From positions 1 to 64,000 of the forward strand of contig CANMRM010000006.1 of NCBI GenBank assembly GCA_947500295.1: DNA of 64,000 bases, given 5' to 3'. A program made the position numbers and the translations under genes. The notes beneath the pieces are model-generated. The model had not been told where the DNA came from, did not search any database, and worked only from the letters and a program-made list of their open reading frames with translations. Source of the DNA: an uncultured Kordiimonas sp. Its GTDB lineage: Bacteria > Pseudomonadota > Alphaproteobacteria > Sphingomonadales > Kordiimonadaceae. Shown piece by piece: positions 446 to 60,761 of the stretch (positions within the stretch are counted from its first letter, which is position 1; each line of letters opens with the position of its first letter).

Positions 446-522
446 CGCGGGATGGAGCAGCCCGGTAGCTCGTCAGGCTCATAACCTGAAGGTCGCAGGT
501 TCAAATCCTGCTCCCGCAACCA
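446..522 (+). tRNA. Initiator tRNA-Met (CAT)
   Basis: This is a 77-nt cloverleaf with acceptor CGCGGG pairing CCCGC, the C1:A72 mismatch that marks bacterial initiator tRNAs, an anticodon loop CTCATAA with anticodon CAT flanked by the GGG/CCC-like initiator stem (TCAGG/CCTGA), the GGTTCAAATCC T-arm and an encoded CCA end. It lies downstream of 5S rRNA. Its 3' 50 bases form the core of the direct repeats found later in the window, so it is the integration target of the accessory elements. The tRNA remains intact after integration. Confidence 0.96.
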
Positions 523-523
523 A
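473..523 (+). repeat. attL core (tRNA-fMet 3' end)
   Basis: The 51 bases from the anticodon arm through CCA plus one A are repeated without mismatch at 25888-25938 and 35809-35859. Integration into the 3' half of a tRNA regenerates the gene on one side and leaves a 3' fragment on the other, and these sites fit that pattern. The recombinase gene starts about 150 bp away, as expected for an integrase next to its own attachment site. The motifs GACTCACACAA (607-617) and CTATCACAC (618-626) in between recur beside the other repeats and may be integrase arm sites. Confidence 0.85.
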
Positions 524-526
524 AGC

Positions 527-560
527 AAGCCAGCTAAGTATATAACTTAGCTGGCTTTTT
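527..560 (+). terminator. Terminator after tRNA-fMet
   Basis: AAGCCAGCTAAGT and ACTTAGCTGGCTT form a stem of 11 or more bp with a 5-nt loop, followed by TTTTT. It starts five bases after the tRNA CCA. Its sequence is unrelated to the terminators behind the other tRNA 3' fragments, so it probably came in with the integrated element. Confidence 0.85.
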
Positions 561-671
561 CTTTGTTCGCTCCGCAGGATTTGACACGAAGAATCTCCTG
601 CATTTAGACTCACACAACTATCACACAAAAACACACACCGACGCACAGCGTCCATATACGCTCATTTGGGG

Positions 672-58400: not shown

Positions 58401-58654
58401 TCTTTCAAGCCAAATAAATCCTTCACCTTATCTCTGTACTGAATCGTCACATTCTCTGGGTGGACAAAAGCGTCAACCGTGGTGTCTTTGACAAGGGACG
58501 GAATAAAAGAAGCGGCGATCAGAATGAAGATTATCCCGATCGCAATGACCCTGCGTGGATACTCCGTGATAAAGAAGAAGTAGGCTCTTGGTAGATCAAG
58601 TGCCGTGACAATGCTGTCTGCAAATTCATCAAGTTTTTTTTCGTCGTATCCCAC
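55466..58654 (-). CDS. MMPL/RND exporter fused to LolA-like domain
   Basis: 1062 residues, GTG start with GGGGGA six bases upstream. Residues ~1-790 form an MMPL/RND (HpnN-like) transporter: TM1, a periplasmic loop, five helices around LPFTLVVIIVMMFLAF, then the second half with GVGVDFSIHTVEKIRLY. Then comes a signal-peptide-like stretch (RAVAATATLLLASMTFILMP...VWAQ), and residues ~820-1062 are a lipoprotein-sorting (PF17131-type, LolA-like) domain with KSDNQWLYLPALRRSRRI and GTDFTYEDI. These two parts are usually separate neighbouring genes. The fused signal peptide would serve as an extra membrane helix. Confidence 0.88.
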   Translation of the reverse strand: MGYDEKKLDEFADSIVTALDLPRAYFFFITEYPRRVIAIGIIFILIAASFIPSLVKDTTVDAFVHPENVTIQYRDKVKDLFGLKDPILIAVTGDTENAIYQPASLKAVRELTEAISRIDNIDPNKVMSLSTEMSIRGTETDLFVDPLIPEGPITAESAQVTLERVTKMPLYLGNLVTDDGSATLIVAEVLDQRIAGQTYEAILEYVDGRAPENYAIHVAGASAVDGYFSTYIDKDSRQTLPFTLVVIIVMMFLAFRTPRSVGLPLFVIVGTVSGTIGTMAAFGIPYYAITSALPIILVGISVADSIHVLTYYYTEQKAHPERTSRELVVSACSQVWRPLVLTSLTTMIGFLGIAITAIMPPMVWFSVFAFLGVFIALVLTLTILPAALSLCKPLPCKAITEGEKGGLVARCLSRVSILAIEHPALVNGAAVITIVVGMIGVGNLTVEREAVNNFRENEPIRIANALINDRFNGTTYLDVVIEAPEEGGLYEPENLQKMEALQSFLENLRHIKGSVSIVDYLKQLNKALNADDQTYYVVPEDRDLIEQLFLVHSATGDPTDFEEEVDPSFQTALIRATLNTSLYSEVSSTVKTAEAYITRTFADDSITATLSGRATLDHNWISPLKSGHFKSLGVSIILIWIAAVFLFRSVLAGTITLVPVAVAILMIYAVMGSLGIWLEPATSMFAPIAIGVGVDFSIHTVEKIRLYTRKQGLSLREAMERIAFRSGRALFFNFASIFLGFGVLLFSELPTLNRFGGLTTVALASAYVMALIVLPALIATLNTERVFKPMGRRAVAATATLLLASMTFILMPNDVWAQETQEGRALAERIAARPEAENVDQIITMVLTDRKGRTKERTARMLRKVGEDQRRSIIAFSKPANIKDTAFMTHDYNESTKSDNQWLYLPALRRSRRISASDRGDYFLGTDFTYEDIKDSTKFSLTDYHFSSDGTEEIGGIAYTVLTLTPVSEAIAKELGYSKVRVAVDAENAMPVQAQYWDVSGNSLKTIQLQDRIVQDGFWTVQTIIASNHKTGHRTEFRISNIDYALDLSLSTFTERKLRSGL

Positions 58655-59036
58655 CGTGTATCCCCCAATACCCCAACAGCCCCGATCTCTGTCGATAGGC
58701 TTCCAATATCTGCGAAATCTATTGATTGCTCTTCCGGTACACCTTCAGACTTATGAGCGAATTGTTATAGAAAGGGCGGCTCCCCTCTGTAGTTTACGGG
58801 AAGTGCTTGGAGAGTAACGAGAACCGCCGCCCCGAAGCCGCTGTATGGTGAAAACTCTACGGAAGCTCGTCGGTTTCGAATTTGGACGAGGTTTTTTTAA
58901 AAATGACGCATGTTTTCTATATTTGACGAGCGTGGTTTCCTCTAAAATACGCGCTTGTGGACGAACTCTGTTCCGATCGTGAATTGAATTTACGATGATG
59001 AGCAGGGCAGTCTGAGATCCGATTGGGGGACGTTCG
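58655..59036. other. Divergent intergenic region
   Basis: About 380 bp between the exporter gene (minus) and the membrane AraC gene (plus). I see no gene, strong hairpin or repeat. It must carry the promoters for both directions. Confidence 0.6.
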
Positions 59037-60137
59037 GTGACCATGGAGTTTGTTGATGACCTGTTCCGTTTCGGAGCAATAAGTAATCTATTTTGGGTCG
59101 CTTTTCTGGCTCGAGGAAACCATTCGAAACTCGCCTATTCATACTTAACAATTGCTACGATGATCAGTTGTATATGCTTTCTGATTACCTCAGCCTATGA
59201 CGAGAATGCGTTGTTCGGCCCCTTTGGATATCTGGTAGCATTTGCTTCCAGGTTGGTCGTTGTTTTAACATGGCTATTCAGCATAAATGCGCTCAGTGAT
59301 AACTTTAAAATAGGTCCACTATATCTGCTGGTTCTGGGGATATATTGCATAAGATCAATCGTTTTTCAGTTAGATATCATTCCTCATGATGTGTTTGCGG
59401 TCACATCCTATGTGATGCGGGCAACAATATATGTCTTCATTTTATATAAAGTGTTTACCGAGCGATCTGGCGATTTGCTCGAAAAACGACGGAAGTTTCG
59501 AATTTGGTTTATGTTCCTGATAACTTTTGGACCAGCGATATTCACGCTGAATCGTATTTTTATCAGCGATACTCTATATGTTGACGATGTCTCTCTCTTG
59601 GAATCGATCGTCGTCTTTTTTGGAAGCAGCTTTTTGCTGTTTCACTCCATACGTCCTCAAGAAAAGTATCCATTTGAAGCCGGAGATAGTTCAGTTCCCG
59701 ACATGTCATTCAACGGTACGTTGCCCGATGGACATACGGAGCTTTTGGCGGCTGACAAACACAATTTGACAATCCTGAAAGAGAAAATGGAAGCAGGTTT
59801 GTACCGTGAACCAGGATTAACCGTTGCCAAGATAGCGGACACAATAAAAATACAAGAGCATCGGCTGCGCAAACTTATCAACCGTCACCTTGGATACAGG
59901 AATATCTCCCAGTATCTCAATGACTATCGGGTTGATGAGGCCAAAAATCGGCTTTCAGATATAAATGAACGGCATGTGCCTATTTTGACTATTGCGATGG
60001 AAGCTGGCTATGTATCTCTCCGCCCGTTCAATCGCGCCTTCAAGAACCGTACAGGCCGGACACCGAGTGCATACCGCGAAGAATATCTGGGGGCACAGTC
60101 AAGCTCGTCCAATAATACTCACTCCATCAGACCATAA
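59037..60137 (+). CDS. Membrane-bound AraC-type regulator
   Basis: 366 residues: seven hydrophobic helices in the first ~210 residues (for example ISNLFWVAFLARG, ATMISCICFLITSA, LYLLVLGIYCIRSIVF) and a C-terminal AraC DNA-binding domain (LTVAKIADTIKIQEHRLRKL, ILTIAMEAGYVSLRPFNRAF, TGRTPSAYR). This is the 7TM-AraC layout, sensing at the membrane. It is divergent from the DUF1302/MMPL genes and is their likely regulator. The GTG at 59037 has GGGGGA six bases upstream; ATG 59043 is possible. Confidence 0.87.
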   Translation: MTMEFVDDLFRFGAISNLFWVAFLARGNHSKLAYSYLTIATMISCICFLITSAYDENALFGPFGYLVAFASRLVVVLTWLFSINALSDNFKIGPLYLLVLGIYCIRSIVFQLDIIPHDVFAVTSYVMRATIYVFILYKVFTERSGDLLEKRRKFRIWFMFLITFGPAIFTLNRIFISDTLYVDDVSLLESIVVFFGSSFLLFHSIRPQEKYPFEAGDSSVPDMSFNGTLPDGHTELLAADKHNLTILKEKMEAGLYREPGLTVAKIADTIKIQEHRLRKLINRHLGYRNISQYLNDYRVDEAKNRLSDINERHVPILTIAMEAGYVSLRPFNRAFKNRTGRTPSAYREEYLGAQSSSSNNTHSIRP

Positions 60138-60761
60138 GTTCTCATGCATCGGAGTAGCCAAATTTGCTTGTGAAACAAACAGGTCAGAAAAATCCATCTT
60201 TGGCGGTCACAAAATTAATCACTGAGATTCGACGGAGCTGACATCAGAAAAATGGTGCGAACCTCCATTATAGGCTCGAGAGCCTAAAGCCAAAAGGTAA
60301 CCACCAGAAGAGCTTTAACATGAGTTTTTGAATAACCAGATTTAGCACATTTTCTATCACACTAATTTTGTTGAAGCTTATCGTCCCTATATTTCAATGG
60401 TTTAGATATCTATCTATTAGGCTCAAAACCTGCCGACTGCAGGTTCATATGAAGTAAAGCGGAAGGACGAGGAAAGGGCGTAACCCCTGGCGAGACTAGT
60501 CCTGCTCCCGCAACCAAACGCAAAAGACCCGTCCGACTAGGGGGACTCAGCTCTCTGGCTTAAATGAAGATCTATAGGATTGGCTTGCTTGATTAGGGAT
60601 GCTGGGAAAAGGCTTGCTTTGGTAGCAATAGATGTTCCTTGAGTTGTATTATTCATTGCAGCTCGGACGTTAACTGCTGTTTTAATTATTCCTTAAATAT
60701 ATGGGCAAATGGTGGGTCATGCCATGGGGGTATTAATTGCTTAATATTAAGGGCGTCCTCT
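60138..60761. other. Gap with site E and leader of chemoreceptor gene
   Basis: About 620 bp without a supported gene. It holds the att-like arm and interrupted tRNA remnant (60342-60516) and, to the right, an A/T-rich leader before the chemoreceptor start. An open frame runs into the receptor from 60639 but its Cys-rich translation looks non-coding. Confidence 0.55.
60342..60516 (+). repeat. Interrupted tRNA-fMet remnant with arm (site E)
   Basis: The arm TTAGCACATTTTCTATCACA (60342-60361) is identical to that of site B. Then TTAGGCTCAAAACCTG and GCAGGTTCA (60416-60446) match the tRNA anticodon and T-arms with changes, including the anticodon. A 53-nt insertion (60447-60499) breaks the T-loop, and TCCTGCTCCCGCAACCA (60500-60516) completes the tRNA 3' end. 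It is non-functional as a tRNA. It marks the right edge of the att-bounded units. Confidence 0.75.

What the first reader, a model, noticed from the sequence alone, without database searches (positions are those of the whole stretch)
446..60516. Tandem array of integrated units at one tRNA-fMet
The intact tRNA-fMet is followed by two perfect 51-bp copies of its 3' end (25888, 35809), two 20-bp tails (26062, 35984), one mutated tail (49185) and one interrupted copy (60416-60516). Three of these are preceded by related arm sequences, and the 20-mer TTAGCACATTTTCTATCACA is identical at 25812 and 60342. Only the first unit has a tRNA-proximal integrase. This fits accretion of an integrative mobilizable element next to cis-mobilizable elements that have kept att sites but lost their integrase. 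One integrase could then move several units, including the chlorocatechol genes, singly or together.
Basis: partly seen in the sequence, partly recalled or inferred. Interest (0 to 1): 0.78.

Follow-up and report, generated by a model that had tools for sequence, protein, structure and literature searches.

The report
Cargo-cassette array at tRNA-fMet
Behind one tRNA gene this marine bacterium has lined up a row of roughly 10,000-base gene packages, most of them ending in the same short docking site, and related species carry some of the same packages in other orders and places, so the row looks like a shelf of exchangeable cassettes served by a mobile element's integrase.

Summary
The repeats are real and exact. 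They belong to a system found across the genus. The window opens a variable region of about 92 kb between an rRNA-linked tRNA-fMet and a conserved katG backbone; in G017 the gap is 17 kb, in G013 7.6 kb from a contig start in the fMet flank. Most units end in a ~131-bp site: a ~97-bp arm plus the tRNA 3' half. On 12 contigs with several sites, all 45 sites share one strand per contig. Eight units recur in other genomes, none with a neighbouring unit detectable; five are 80-90% alike, backbones 71-74%. A complete relative shows one empty and two filled tRNA-fMet sites. Arms fall into two classes that match two versions of the integrase N-terminus, 14 of 14 by eye. Behind none of 55 sites was a left arm found, so the cargo units are not textbook CIMEs. 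One-armed, singly exchanged units look more like an integron-style cassette array; this is inferred, not shown. New variant of a known kind.

The parts
446..522 (+). tRNA-fMet, the anchor (attB/attL core); the window starts in what reads like the end of an rRNA operon
   Evidence: ARAGORN; Rfam tRNA 64.8 bits; conserved upstream stretches of tRNA-fMet loci in relatives; rRNA itself not searched
523..560 (+). terminator-like hairpin restored behind the tRNA by the mobile element
   Evidence: sequence; fold of 502-560 z -6.6
606..640 (+). class-A left arm (ACTCACACAACTATCACACAAAAACACACAC)
   Evidence: similar motif at the same distance in G016 A and B
666..1868 (+). tRNA-proximal tyrosine integrase with class-A N-terminus
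   Evidence: Pfam PF00589 24.5 bits, E 2.7e-5, just under the curated cut-off of 27.1; 92% homologues next to two tRNA-fMet genes of G016
2873..3451 (-). second tyrosine recombinase (192 aa) of the element
   Evidence: Pfam PF00589; homologues in the G016 A, B and G017 elements
5690..6901 (+). coupling-protein-like gene (403 aa)
   Evidence: Pfam PF02534; about 34% homologues in the G016 A, B and G017 elements
7702..9345 (-). relaxase (MobA/VirD2-like)
   Evidence: Pfam PF03432; homologues in the G016 A, B and G017 elements
9711..11426 (-). coupling protein of the T4SS-DNA_transf family
   Evidence: Pfam PF02534; 70-88% homologues in the G016 A, B and G017 elements
11832..13112 (+). third tyrosine recombinase (426 aa)
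   Evidence: Pfam PF00589; 54-55% homologues in the G016 A, B and G017 elements
23989..24090 (+). decayed class-A arm+core, probably the element's own former right end
   Evidence: nhmmer 37 bits
25802..25938 (+). class-B site with perfect 51-bp tRNA 3' copy (25888-25938)
25939..26081 (+). non-coding mini-module (terminator + insert II + 20-bp tail), 95% like the flank of the tRNA-fMet on contig C3
26082..35710 (.). cargo unit 2: glutamate symporter family, AraC regulator, three tail-collar proteins, 1471-aa RTX/cadherin protein
   Evidence: Pfam
35711..35859 (+). class-A site with perfect 51-bp tRNA 3' copy (35809-35859); tail at 35984-36003
36004..49182 (.). cargo unit 3: CoA transferase, AhpC/TSA protein, thiolase, Fe-alcohol dehydrogenase, dienelactone hydrolase, intradiol dioxygenase, FAD monooxygenase, LysR, muconate lactonizing enzyme family, TonB receptor
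   Evidence: Pfam; homologous unit in G018 C4 7204-19844
49183..49202 (+). mutated 20-bp tail followed by a terminator, left border of unit 4; no arm found
49203..60319 (.). cargo unit 4: methyltransferase, hydrolase, thioesterase, LysR, polyketide-cyclase-family protein, DUF1302, MMPL transporter, AraC regulator
   Evidence: Pfam; 54137-60073 is 90% like G018 C3
60320..60518 (+). class-B site whose tRNA T-loop is interrupted by a 50-bp insert
60519..64000 (+). start of cargo unit 5 (MCP receptor in the window; efflux genes mostly beyond it), which ends at a class-A site at 70065-70193 outside the window

Best explanation
The window is the tRNA-proximal end of an additive island at tRNA-fMet in a genome of Kordiimonas or a sister genus. 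Shown: the island contains cargo units of about 10 kb; most end in a site made of a ~97-bp arm and the 3' half of tRNA-fMet, in one orientation per contig; some units recur in other species with other neighbours; an integrase-bearing mobilizable element docks precisely at the same tRNA in relatives. Inferred: the tyrosine integrase of such docking elements recognises the arms through its N-terminal domain, class A or class B, and recombines the tRNA core, and so inserts, removes and exchanges integrase-less cargo units. Because a right-hand site but no left arm is found, and shared units kept no detectable neighbour, I think units mostly move singly, cassette-like, with integrase supplied by a resident or visiting element of the matching arm class. 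Block transfer together with the element is the main alternative. Transfer between cells would need a helper, since no VirB4-type ATPase was found.
For: Site family: 68 nhmmer hits, tRNA genes included; with loci added later, 55 full sites and 14 core only; 60 hits of at least 46.5 bits in 7 of 19 genus genomes, training sites included; hits at that level in 11 of the 177 other order genomes. Orientation: 45 sites on 12 contigs with two or more, one strand per contig; in single-contig G043, 7 of 7 partial core copies found by the tRNA query lie downstream and on the strand of one of three tRNA-fMet genes. Precise insertion: G016 flank after the right site = empty-site flank, 99.6% over 278 bp and 100% over 417 bp. 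Exchange: units in other contexts; 5 of 8 at 80.1-90.0% against backbones of 70.7-73.9%. Variable locus length. Arm class equals integrase N-terminus class in 14 of 14; G000 and G017 share 96% of the catalytic part but 53% of the N-terminus. One arm class or the other in 53 of 55 sites, against 2 of 54 windows 300 bp upstream and 9% of shuffled arms.
Against: No circular form, junction read or excision was observed. Four array-rich genomes (G018, G008, G001, G014) have no close homologue of the integrase, so the agent is absent there now. Broken tyrosine-recombinase fragments lie about 1.4 kb and 0.2 kb from a site in G008 (C121) and G014 (C127), which fits decayed elements. G008 and G014 are bins in about 150 and 170 contigs. 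3 of 8 shared units are at 70.5, 74.7 and 77.9%, below or only somewhat above the backbone. The expected decay of sites with distance is not significant (p 0.065). One weak site of G016 (47 bits, 2.088 Mb) is far from any tRNA-fMet. The 14 integrases are not independent; several are close relatives, some are broken or cut by contig ends, and for G093 the contig starts too near to show the tRNA. Classes of the arms beside integrases were read by eye.
Confidence: 0.66

Rival explanations
1. Classical accretion: the resident element excises by left end x any downstream right site of its class and carries the units in between as a block; cargo units are decayed elements (CIMEs) left behind.
For: Element plus cargo at one tRNA; integrase-less units; CIME-IME accretion is a described route (PMC5704250, passages read). 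The class-A left end pairs naturally with the class-A site at 35711, which would carry unit 2. Broken recombinase fragments near sites in G008 C121 and G014 C127 look like decayed elements.
Against: No left arms behind any of 55 sites; 0 of 8 shared units keeps a neighbouring unit detectable by blastn at 400 bp or more, whereas blocks should.
Confidence: 0.4
2. Homologous recombination between the tRNA-fMet/rRNA loci and between the repeated cores shuffles the units; the integrase only made the first insertions.
For: G000 and G016 have two and three tRNA-fMet loci with near-identical flanks or flank modules; cores share 33-51 near-identical bases; terminator and insert modules look mosaic (by eye).
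Against: It does not explain why ~97 bp of non-coding arm stay conserved at integrase-less units (median 88.9 bits against 74-97 at three element ends) or why arms fall into the two integrase classes.
Confidence: 0.2
3. A fossil: repeated past insertions of elements that lost all but their right-hand cargo; nothing moves now.
For: Several sites are decayed (23989, 60320, 70065; 15 of 55 lack a tail within 300 bp); array-rich genomes lack the integrase; broken recombinase fragments by two sites.
Against: Units at 80-90% identity between species whose backbones are at about 73% show exchange after divergence; two elements with clean ends in G016.
Confidence: 0.2
4. The 26-60 kb genes are ancestral chromosome and the tRNA pieces are incidental.
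For: Unit 3 is at the same katG locus in G018.
Against: katG lies 17 kb from tRNA-fMet in G017 and 7.6 kb from the contig start in G013; the unit-3 monooxygenase is in 2 of 19 genomes.
Confidence: 0.02

Closest known systems
Additive flexible genomic islands at a tRNA (Alteromonas fGI1; Methylophilaceae fGI-2)
   Same: A conserved tRNA is the target for successive cassettes; array length varies from one cassette to over 110 kb; 20-bp tRNA-tail repeats (PMC4119200 and PMC10872708, passages read)
   Different: Here a ~97-bp arm is defined at most units, in two classes tied to the integrase N-terminus; separate tRNA-fMet loci share units between genomes. Whether the known islands have such arms was not tested
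Dehalococcoides ssrA genomic islands
   Same: Tandem islands behind one RNA gene, direct repeats with a conserved motif upstream, 15 of 31 islands without an integration module (PMC3146451, passages read)
   Different: Serine recombinase, tmRNA gene and 15-bp upstream motif there; here a tyrosine integrase, tRNA-fMet, ~97-bp arm, sites in several families of one order
CIME / ICE-IME accretion
   Same: Integrase-less units in tandem with a mobilizable element at one tRNA (PMC5704250, passages read)
   Different: CIMEs keep attL and attR by definition; no left arms were found here
Integrons and CALINs
   Same: One recombination site per cassette, at the end distal to the anchor, same orientation, arrays lacking an integrase (CALIN as described in PMC11389934, passages read)
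   Different: Units of about 10 kb instead of single genes; site is an arm plus tRNA 3' half; IntI and attC-type folding were not tested
Tycheposons
   Same: tRNA-targeted, tyrosine-recombinase elements with cargo in marine bacteria (seen only as cited in PMC10872708 and PMC11389934; the original paper was not found in the library)
   Different: Their own defining features were not tested here

Membership tests
IME (unit 1) | own integrase next to the target site | tested here: met
   int at 666-1868 behind tRNA-fMet; homologues at tRNA-fMet in G016 x2 and G017
IME (unit 1) | relaxase but no complete conjugation system | tested here: met
   PF03432 relaxase; VirB4-type PF03135 in 0 of 7 genomes, while 1 of 14 control genomes (Caulobacter) was found
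IME (unit 1) | precise insertion, empty site known | tested here: met
   met for the related elements of G016 A and B against locus C; for the window element itself the right end is decayed or displaced
CIME (cargo units) | no integration or transfer genes | tested here: met
   no integrase or relaxase among the Pfam hits of the ORFs scanned at 26-64 kb (short ORFs not all scanned); no PF00589 hit of G000 on C6 between 13.1 and 247 kb
CIME (cargo units) | both attL and attR retained | tested here: not met
   55 right sites; left arms behind 0 of 55; the HMM test recovers 12 of 14 known left arms at 8 bits or more, best window behind a site 4.1 bits
Additive tRNA island | same anchor, variable content between related genomes | tested here: met
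Integron/CALIN | one site per cassette, same orientation | tested here: met
   within the window 3 of 4 unit borders have an arm
Integron/CALIN | IntI integrase and folded attC sites | not tested
   the integrase matches only PF00589 in Pfam; no IntI or attC model was run
Tycheposon | hallmark replication and mobility genes | not tested
   original description not available in the library
Dehalococcoides ssrA island | serine recombinase, ssrA target | tested here: not met
   tyrosine recombinase (PF00589) and tRNA-fMet

The most novel reading that the evidence does not exclude
A tRNA-anchored, integron-like system for whole operons: about 10-kb cassettes, each with a single one-armed site, are captured and exchanged one at a time at the rRNA-linked tRNA-fMet loci by integrases supplied in trans. 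Two interchangeable N-terminal arm-binding domains on nearly the same catalytic body define two cassette classes that share one array.
Probability: 0.35. Interest if true: 0.82.

Novelty: new variant of a known kind. Interest (0 to 1): 0.62.

Why it matters
It gives a concrete anatomy (site, arm class, integrase domain, anchor) for how an 'additive' tRNA island can grow although most units carry no integrase. It makes predictions that can be tested by PCR: class-matched circles, and a change of unit choice when the integrase N-terminus is exchanged. It also suggests how catabolic operons such as the chlorocatechol-type cluster can hop between species in one order of Alphaproteobacteria.

Tried and rejected
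Plasmid origin: with window 1-25000 (megablast) 0 of 181 plasmid records covers 80% of the query, and with the site 35700-35860 (distant mode) 0 of 472 does; the 20 listed of each align at the tRNA. The integrase has relatives on 24 plasmid records, 4 of them over at least 80% of its length (52-56% identical; Novosphingobium, Rhizobium, Asticcacaulis), not followed. The relaxase matches 3529 plasmid records, none over 80% of its length and the listed ones at 24-25% identity. Phage origin: the exact 28-mer site pattern is in 0 viral contigs; the integrase has one weak match in phage records and two relatives in viral contigs (57% and 44%), not followed. Age gradient of site decay: not significant (p 0.065; sites under 45 bits and arrays with fewer than three sites dropped). 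A XerCD/dif-type explanation was considered from memory only. RNA function of the mini-modules: the 145-base module folds better than shuffles (z -4.4), but that includes a terminator; two interrupted inserts do not (z -0.5 and 0.4); covariation support is weak (both-side changes in 4 of 11, 3 of 5 and 2 of 26 pairs, with 8 broken cells each). Rfam finds only tRNA in the window, L010, L012 and L013. A first pattern scan for left arms missed one of its five controls (G005A), hence the HMM test, which misses 2 of 14 at 8 bits. Of the integrase hits, I looked at 18 loci; the split-frame hits of G030 and G042 and a second piece of G036 were left out. Four of the 18 sit at other tRNAs (by eye tRNA-Arg for G005x, tRNA-Leu for G043c, G099 and G129) and are not among the 14. 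The eight shared units are the stretches that span most of a unit or more than 4 kb. Left out of the eight: G017 C3 58.6-62.7 kb with G018 C3 (84-89%, 3.4 kb, next to a G018 contig break), a 69% stretch of G017 C3 with G018 C8, G018 C7 with G001 C4 (79%, 1.2 kb), parts of the unit-2 RTX gene with G018 C7 (68-71%), pieces of 0.7-2 kb in opposite orientation between G016 and G017 and between G000 and G018, and stretches of about 1 kb shared next to sites of G018 and G001.
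Full report
WHAT THE WINDOW HOLDS. The window is the first 64 kb of contig C6 (372 kb) of a 4.27-Mb genome in 13 contigs. An intact tRNA-fMet lies at 446-522. Further copies lie outside the window at 70156-70213, and a second tRNA-fMet at the start of contig C3 is followed by two more. The sequence behind the C3 tRNA (terminator, insert, second tail) is 95% like what follows the two perfect copies here, so this stretch is the flank of a tRNA-fMet, not a private feature of one unit.

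HOST. An exact 28-base site pattern in named genomes hits 19 stretches, in uncultured Kordiimonas isolates 199-3Z and 176-3Z and in bins labelled Kordiimonadaceae, Emcibacteraceae, Sphingomonadales and Alphaproteobacteria. Contig lengths show that G018, G017, G008 and G014 are among them. I therefore take the window to be from Kordiimonas or a sister; the genome itself is unnamed.

THE SITE. Five seed sites gave a profile that finds 68 places in the first set of fetched loci, tRNA genes included. After more loci were added, 55 are full sites and 14 core only, 12 of these being intact tRNA-fMet genes. On the 12 contigs that hold two or more full sites (45 sites) all lie on one strand. In this set six contigs hold both a tRNA-fMet and full sites, and there all 14 sites lie downstream of the tRNA on its strand. 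The site is about 97 bases of arm and 33 bases of tRNA. A sequence model made from 47 of them finds 60 hits of at least 46.5 bits in 7 of 19 genus genomes (the training sites are among these) and hits at that level in 11 of 177 other genomes of the order, in four families. Spacing between neighbouring sites runs from 1.8 to 27.9 kb, median 9.7 kb, n = 33. In single-contig genome G043, of another family, the tRNA query finds three tRNA-fMet genes and seven partial core copies, each downstream of one of these genes and on its strand, 50-137 kb away. Against: one weak site of G016, at 2.088 Mb, is not near a tRNA-fMet.

THE MOBILE ELEMENT. Unit 1 carries the tRNA-proximal integrase (PF00589 at 24.5 bits, just under the curated cut-off), two further tyrosine recombinases, a relaxase and two coupling-protein genes, plus an Avs3-type defence protein and a TIR protein. 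The three recombinases, the relaxase and the coupling proteins have counterparts behind tRNA-fMet in G016 at two loci and in G017. In G016, a single-contig genome, the third tRNA-fMet is empty: its flank equals the flank beyond the right site of element A (99.6% over 278 bp) and of element B (100% over 417 bp). That is a direct picture of precise insertion. No VirB4-type ATPase was found in any of seven genomes, so the element is most likely a mobilizable one that needs a helper.

THE CARGO UNITS MOVE. Window unit 3 is found in G018 contig C4, the right half of unit 4 in G018 contig C3, the unit behind 70.2 kb in G018 contig C7, and a unit of the second array (C3 26.7-38.2 kb) directly before it in C7. 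Unit G017 C3 36.9-53.0 kb is in G018 C6, and G017 C3 30.5-36.1 kb is in G008 C89. With two weaker cases (G017 C1 with G018 C3; G000 C3 with G001 C25) that makes eight; none keeps a neighbouring unit that blastn detects at 400 bp or more. In most cases the match starts or stops 70-440 bases inside a site; in some copies the far site is no longer detectable, the G017 C1 case stops about 1 kb short of the sites, and the G001 case runs into the right site itself. Five of the eight have 80.1-90.0% identity and three have 70.5, 74.7 and 77.9%, against 70.7-73.9% for eight backbone comparisons among these genomes. The unit-3 monooxygenase is in 2 of 19 genus genomes. Smaller shared stretches that I did not count are listed under Tried and rejected.

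THE LOCUS IS VARIABLE. Behind the array the chromosome is collinear: G000 C6 from 92.8 kb matches G013 C9 from 7.6 kb on. katG, the first backbone gene, is 92.9 kb from the contig start here, 37.3 kb from the contig start in G018, 17 kb from tRNA-fMet in G017 and 7.6 kb from the contig start in G013, whose contig begins in the tRNA flank and which has no site in the model search. That the stretch from 77 to 92.8 kb consists of units is not shown.

TWO ARM CLASSES AND TWO INTEGRASE N-TERMINI. By pattern, 35 of 55 sites have class-A arms (ACTCACACAAAA), 18 class-B (TATCACATTTTCTATCACA), one both and one neither; windows 300, 600 and 1000 bases upstream give 2, 1 and 2 of 54, and shuffled arms about 9%. 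The integrases of the tRNA-fMet type fall into the same two classes. G000 and G017 share 96% of the 315-residue catalytic part but 53% of the first 62 residues, while G000 and G016 share 93-94% and 92%. In 14 of 14 the class of the N-terminus, judged by identity to G000 or G017, agrees with the class of the arm next to it, read by eye. The 14 include close relatives and broken or truncated genes, and for G093 the contig starts too near to show the tRNA. From established work on lambda-type integrases (recalled), the N-terminal domain binds arm sites; that this holds here is inference.

ONE-ARMED UNITS. The integrase-bearing elements have arms on both sides of the core; behind the 55 full sites no left arm was found: 0 of 55 by pattern (4 of 5 controls found) and none above 4.1 bits by HMM, where leave-one-out finds 12 of 14 true left arms at 8 bits or more. 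So the cargo units fail the CIME definition, which asks for attL and attR (PMC5704250, passages). One site per unit, at the same end and in one orientation, is the layout of integron cassettes; contigs C3, C4, C6 and C7 of G018 and C89 of G008, which hold arrays, have no PF00589 match at all, like CALINs (passages in PMC11389934). Against a pure cassette picture, broken recombinase fragments lie close to a site in G008 C121 and in G014 C127.

WHAT FOLLOWS FOR THIS WINDOW. The left end is class A; the decayed site at 23989-24090 is class A; the site at 25802 is class B; the next intact class-A site is 35711. I predict that a circle, if formed, joins 523 and 35859 and carries unit 2 with the element, rather than 523 and 25938. 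This is inference.

WHAT IS NOT SETTLED. Whether units move singly by integrase, as blocks, or by homologous recombination at the repeated cores; whether anything moves today; and what the short non-coding modules are. At 18 of 55 sites the T-loop of the core is interrupted (22 intact, 15 without a tail within 300 bp); 16 of the 18 inserts fall into four classes by pattern. 25 mini-modules of 84-185 bases, some of them copies of each other, combine a terminator, an insert and a tail.

LITERATURE. Tandem RNA-gene islands are known: Dehalococcoides ssrA islands (PMC3146451, passages), Alteromonas fGI1 (PMC4119200, passages), Methylophilaceae (PMC10872708, passages). Searches for Kordiimonas with 'genomic island' and 'integrase' (0 papers), Kordiimonas with 'mobile genetic element' (1 paper, on iron oxidation by its abstract) and Kordiimonadales with 'genomic island' (1 paper, on worm epibionts by its abstract) gave no description of these arrays in the open library; most subscription papers are not held.

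Noticed in passing
window 16066-23068 and 1896-2846: Unit 1 carries an Avs3a-like protein of 2140 aa (E 8e-155), a fragment like Avs3b, and a TIR-domain protein (PDC-S35 models): the mobile element brings phage defence.
   Followed up: partly
window 25938-26082, 60446-60518; G018, G017, G016, G001, G014, G013 loci: Non-coding mini-modules of 84-185 bases (terminator + insert + 20-bp tRNA tail) stand singly or two in a row at unit starts and behind tRNA-fMet; terminators and insert classes look freely combined by eye.
   Followed up: partly
window 323-352: A 30-base, 93% copy of the sequence at 435-464, including the 5' end of tRNA-fMet, lies about 110 bases upstream of the tRNA; similar pieces are upstream of tRNA-fMet in G017 and G005 by eye.
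   Followed up: no
L118, L182, L172, L173: Sister integrases (62-63% identical by the search) sit at other tRNA genes, by eye tRNA-Arg and tRNA-Leu, with a third kind of arm (TTACACA).
   Followed up: no
L174 (G104) and L178 (G043 2798594-2799796): Integrase-bearing elements also sit directly behind array-internal cores, in G104 behind a class-B arm although its own arms are class A (by eye): docking is not limited to the intact tRNA, or later units were added in front.
   Followed up: partly
G008:C121 18787-19164 and G014:C127 19739-19927: Broken tyrosine-recombinase fragments with in-frame stops close to a site of the same contig, perhaps remains of docking elements.
   Followed up: no
window 14627-14865: An imperfect 239-base palindrome (74% to its own reverse complement) in unit 1; 14647-15096 is 85% like a stretch of the G017 element.
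   Followed up: no
window 29034-30979 and 31221-35636: Unit 2 has three consecutive tail-collar-domain ORFs followed by a 1471-aa RTX/cadherin-type protein.
   Followed up: no
G017 contig C2: In G017 katG and the backbone that follows the other array (C3 of the window genome) lie behind one tRNA-fMet, so larger rearrangements between these loci have happened too.
   Followed up: no
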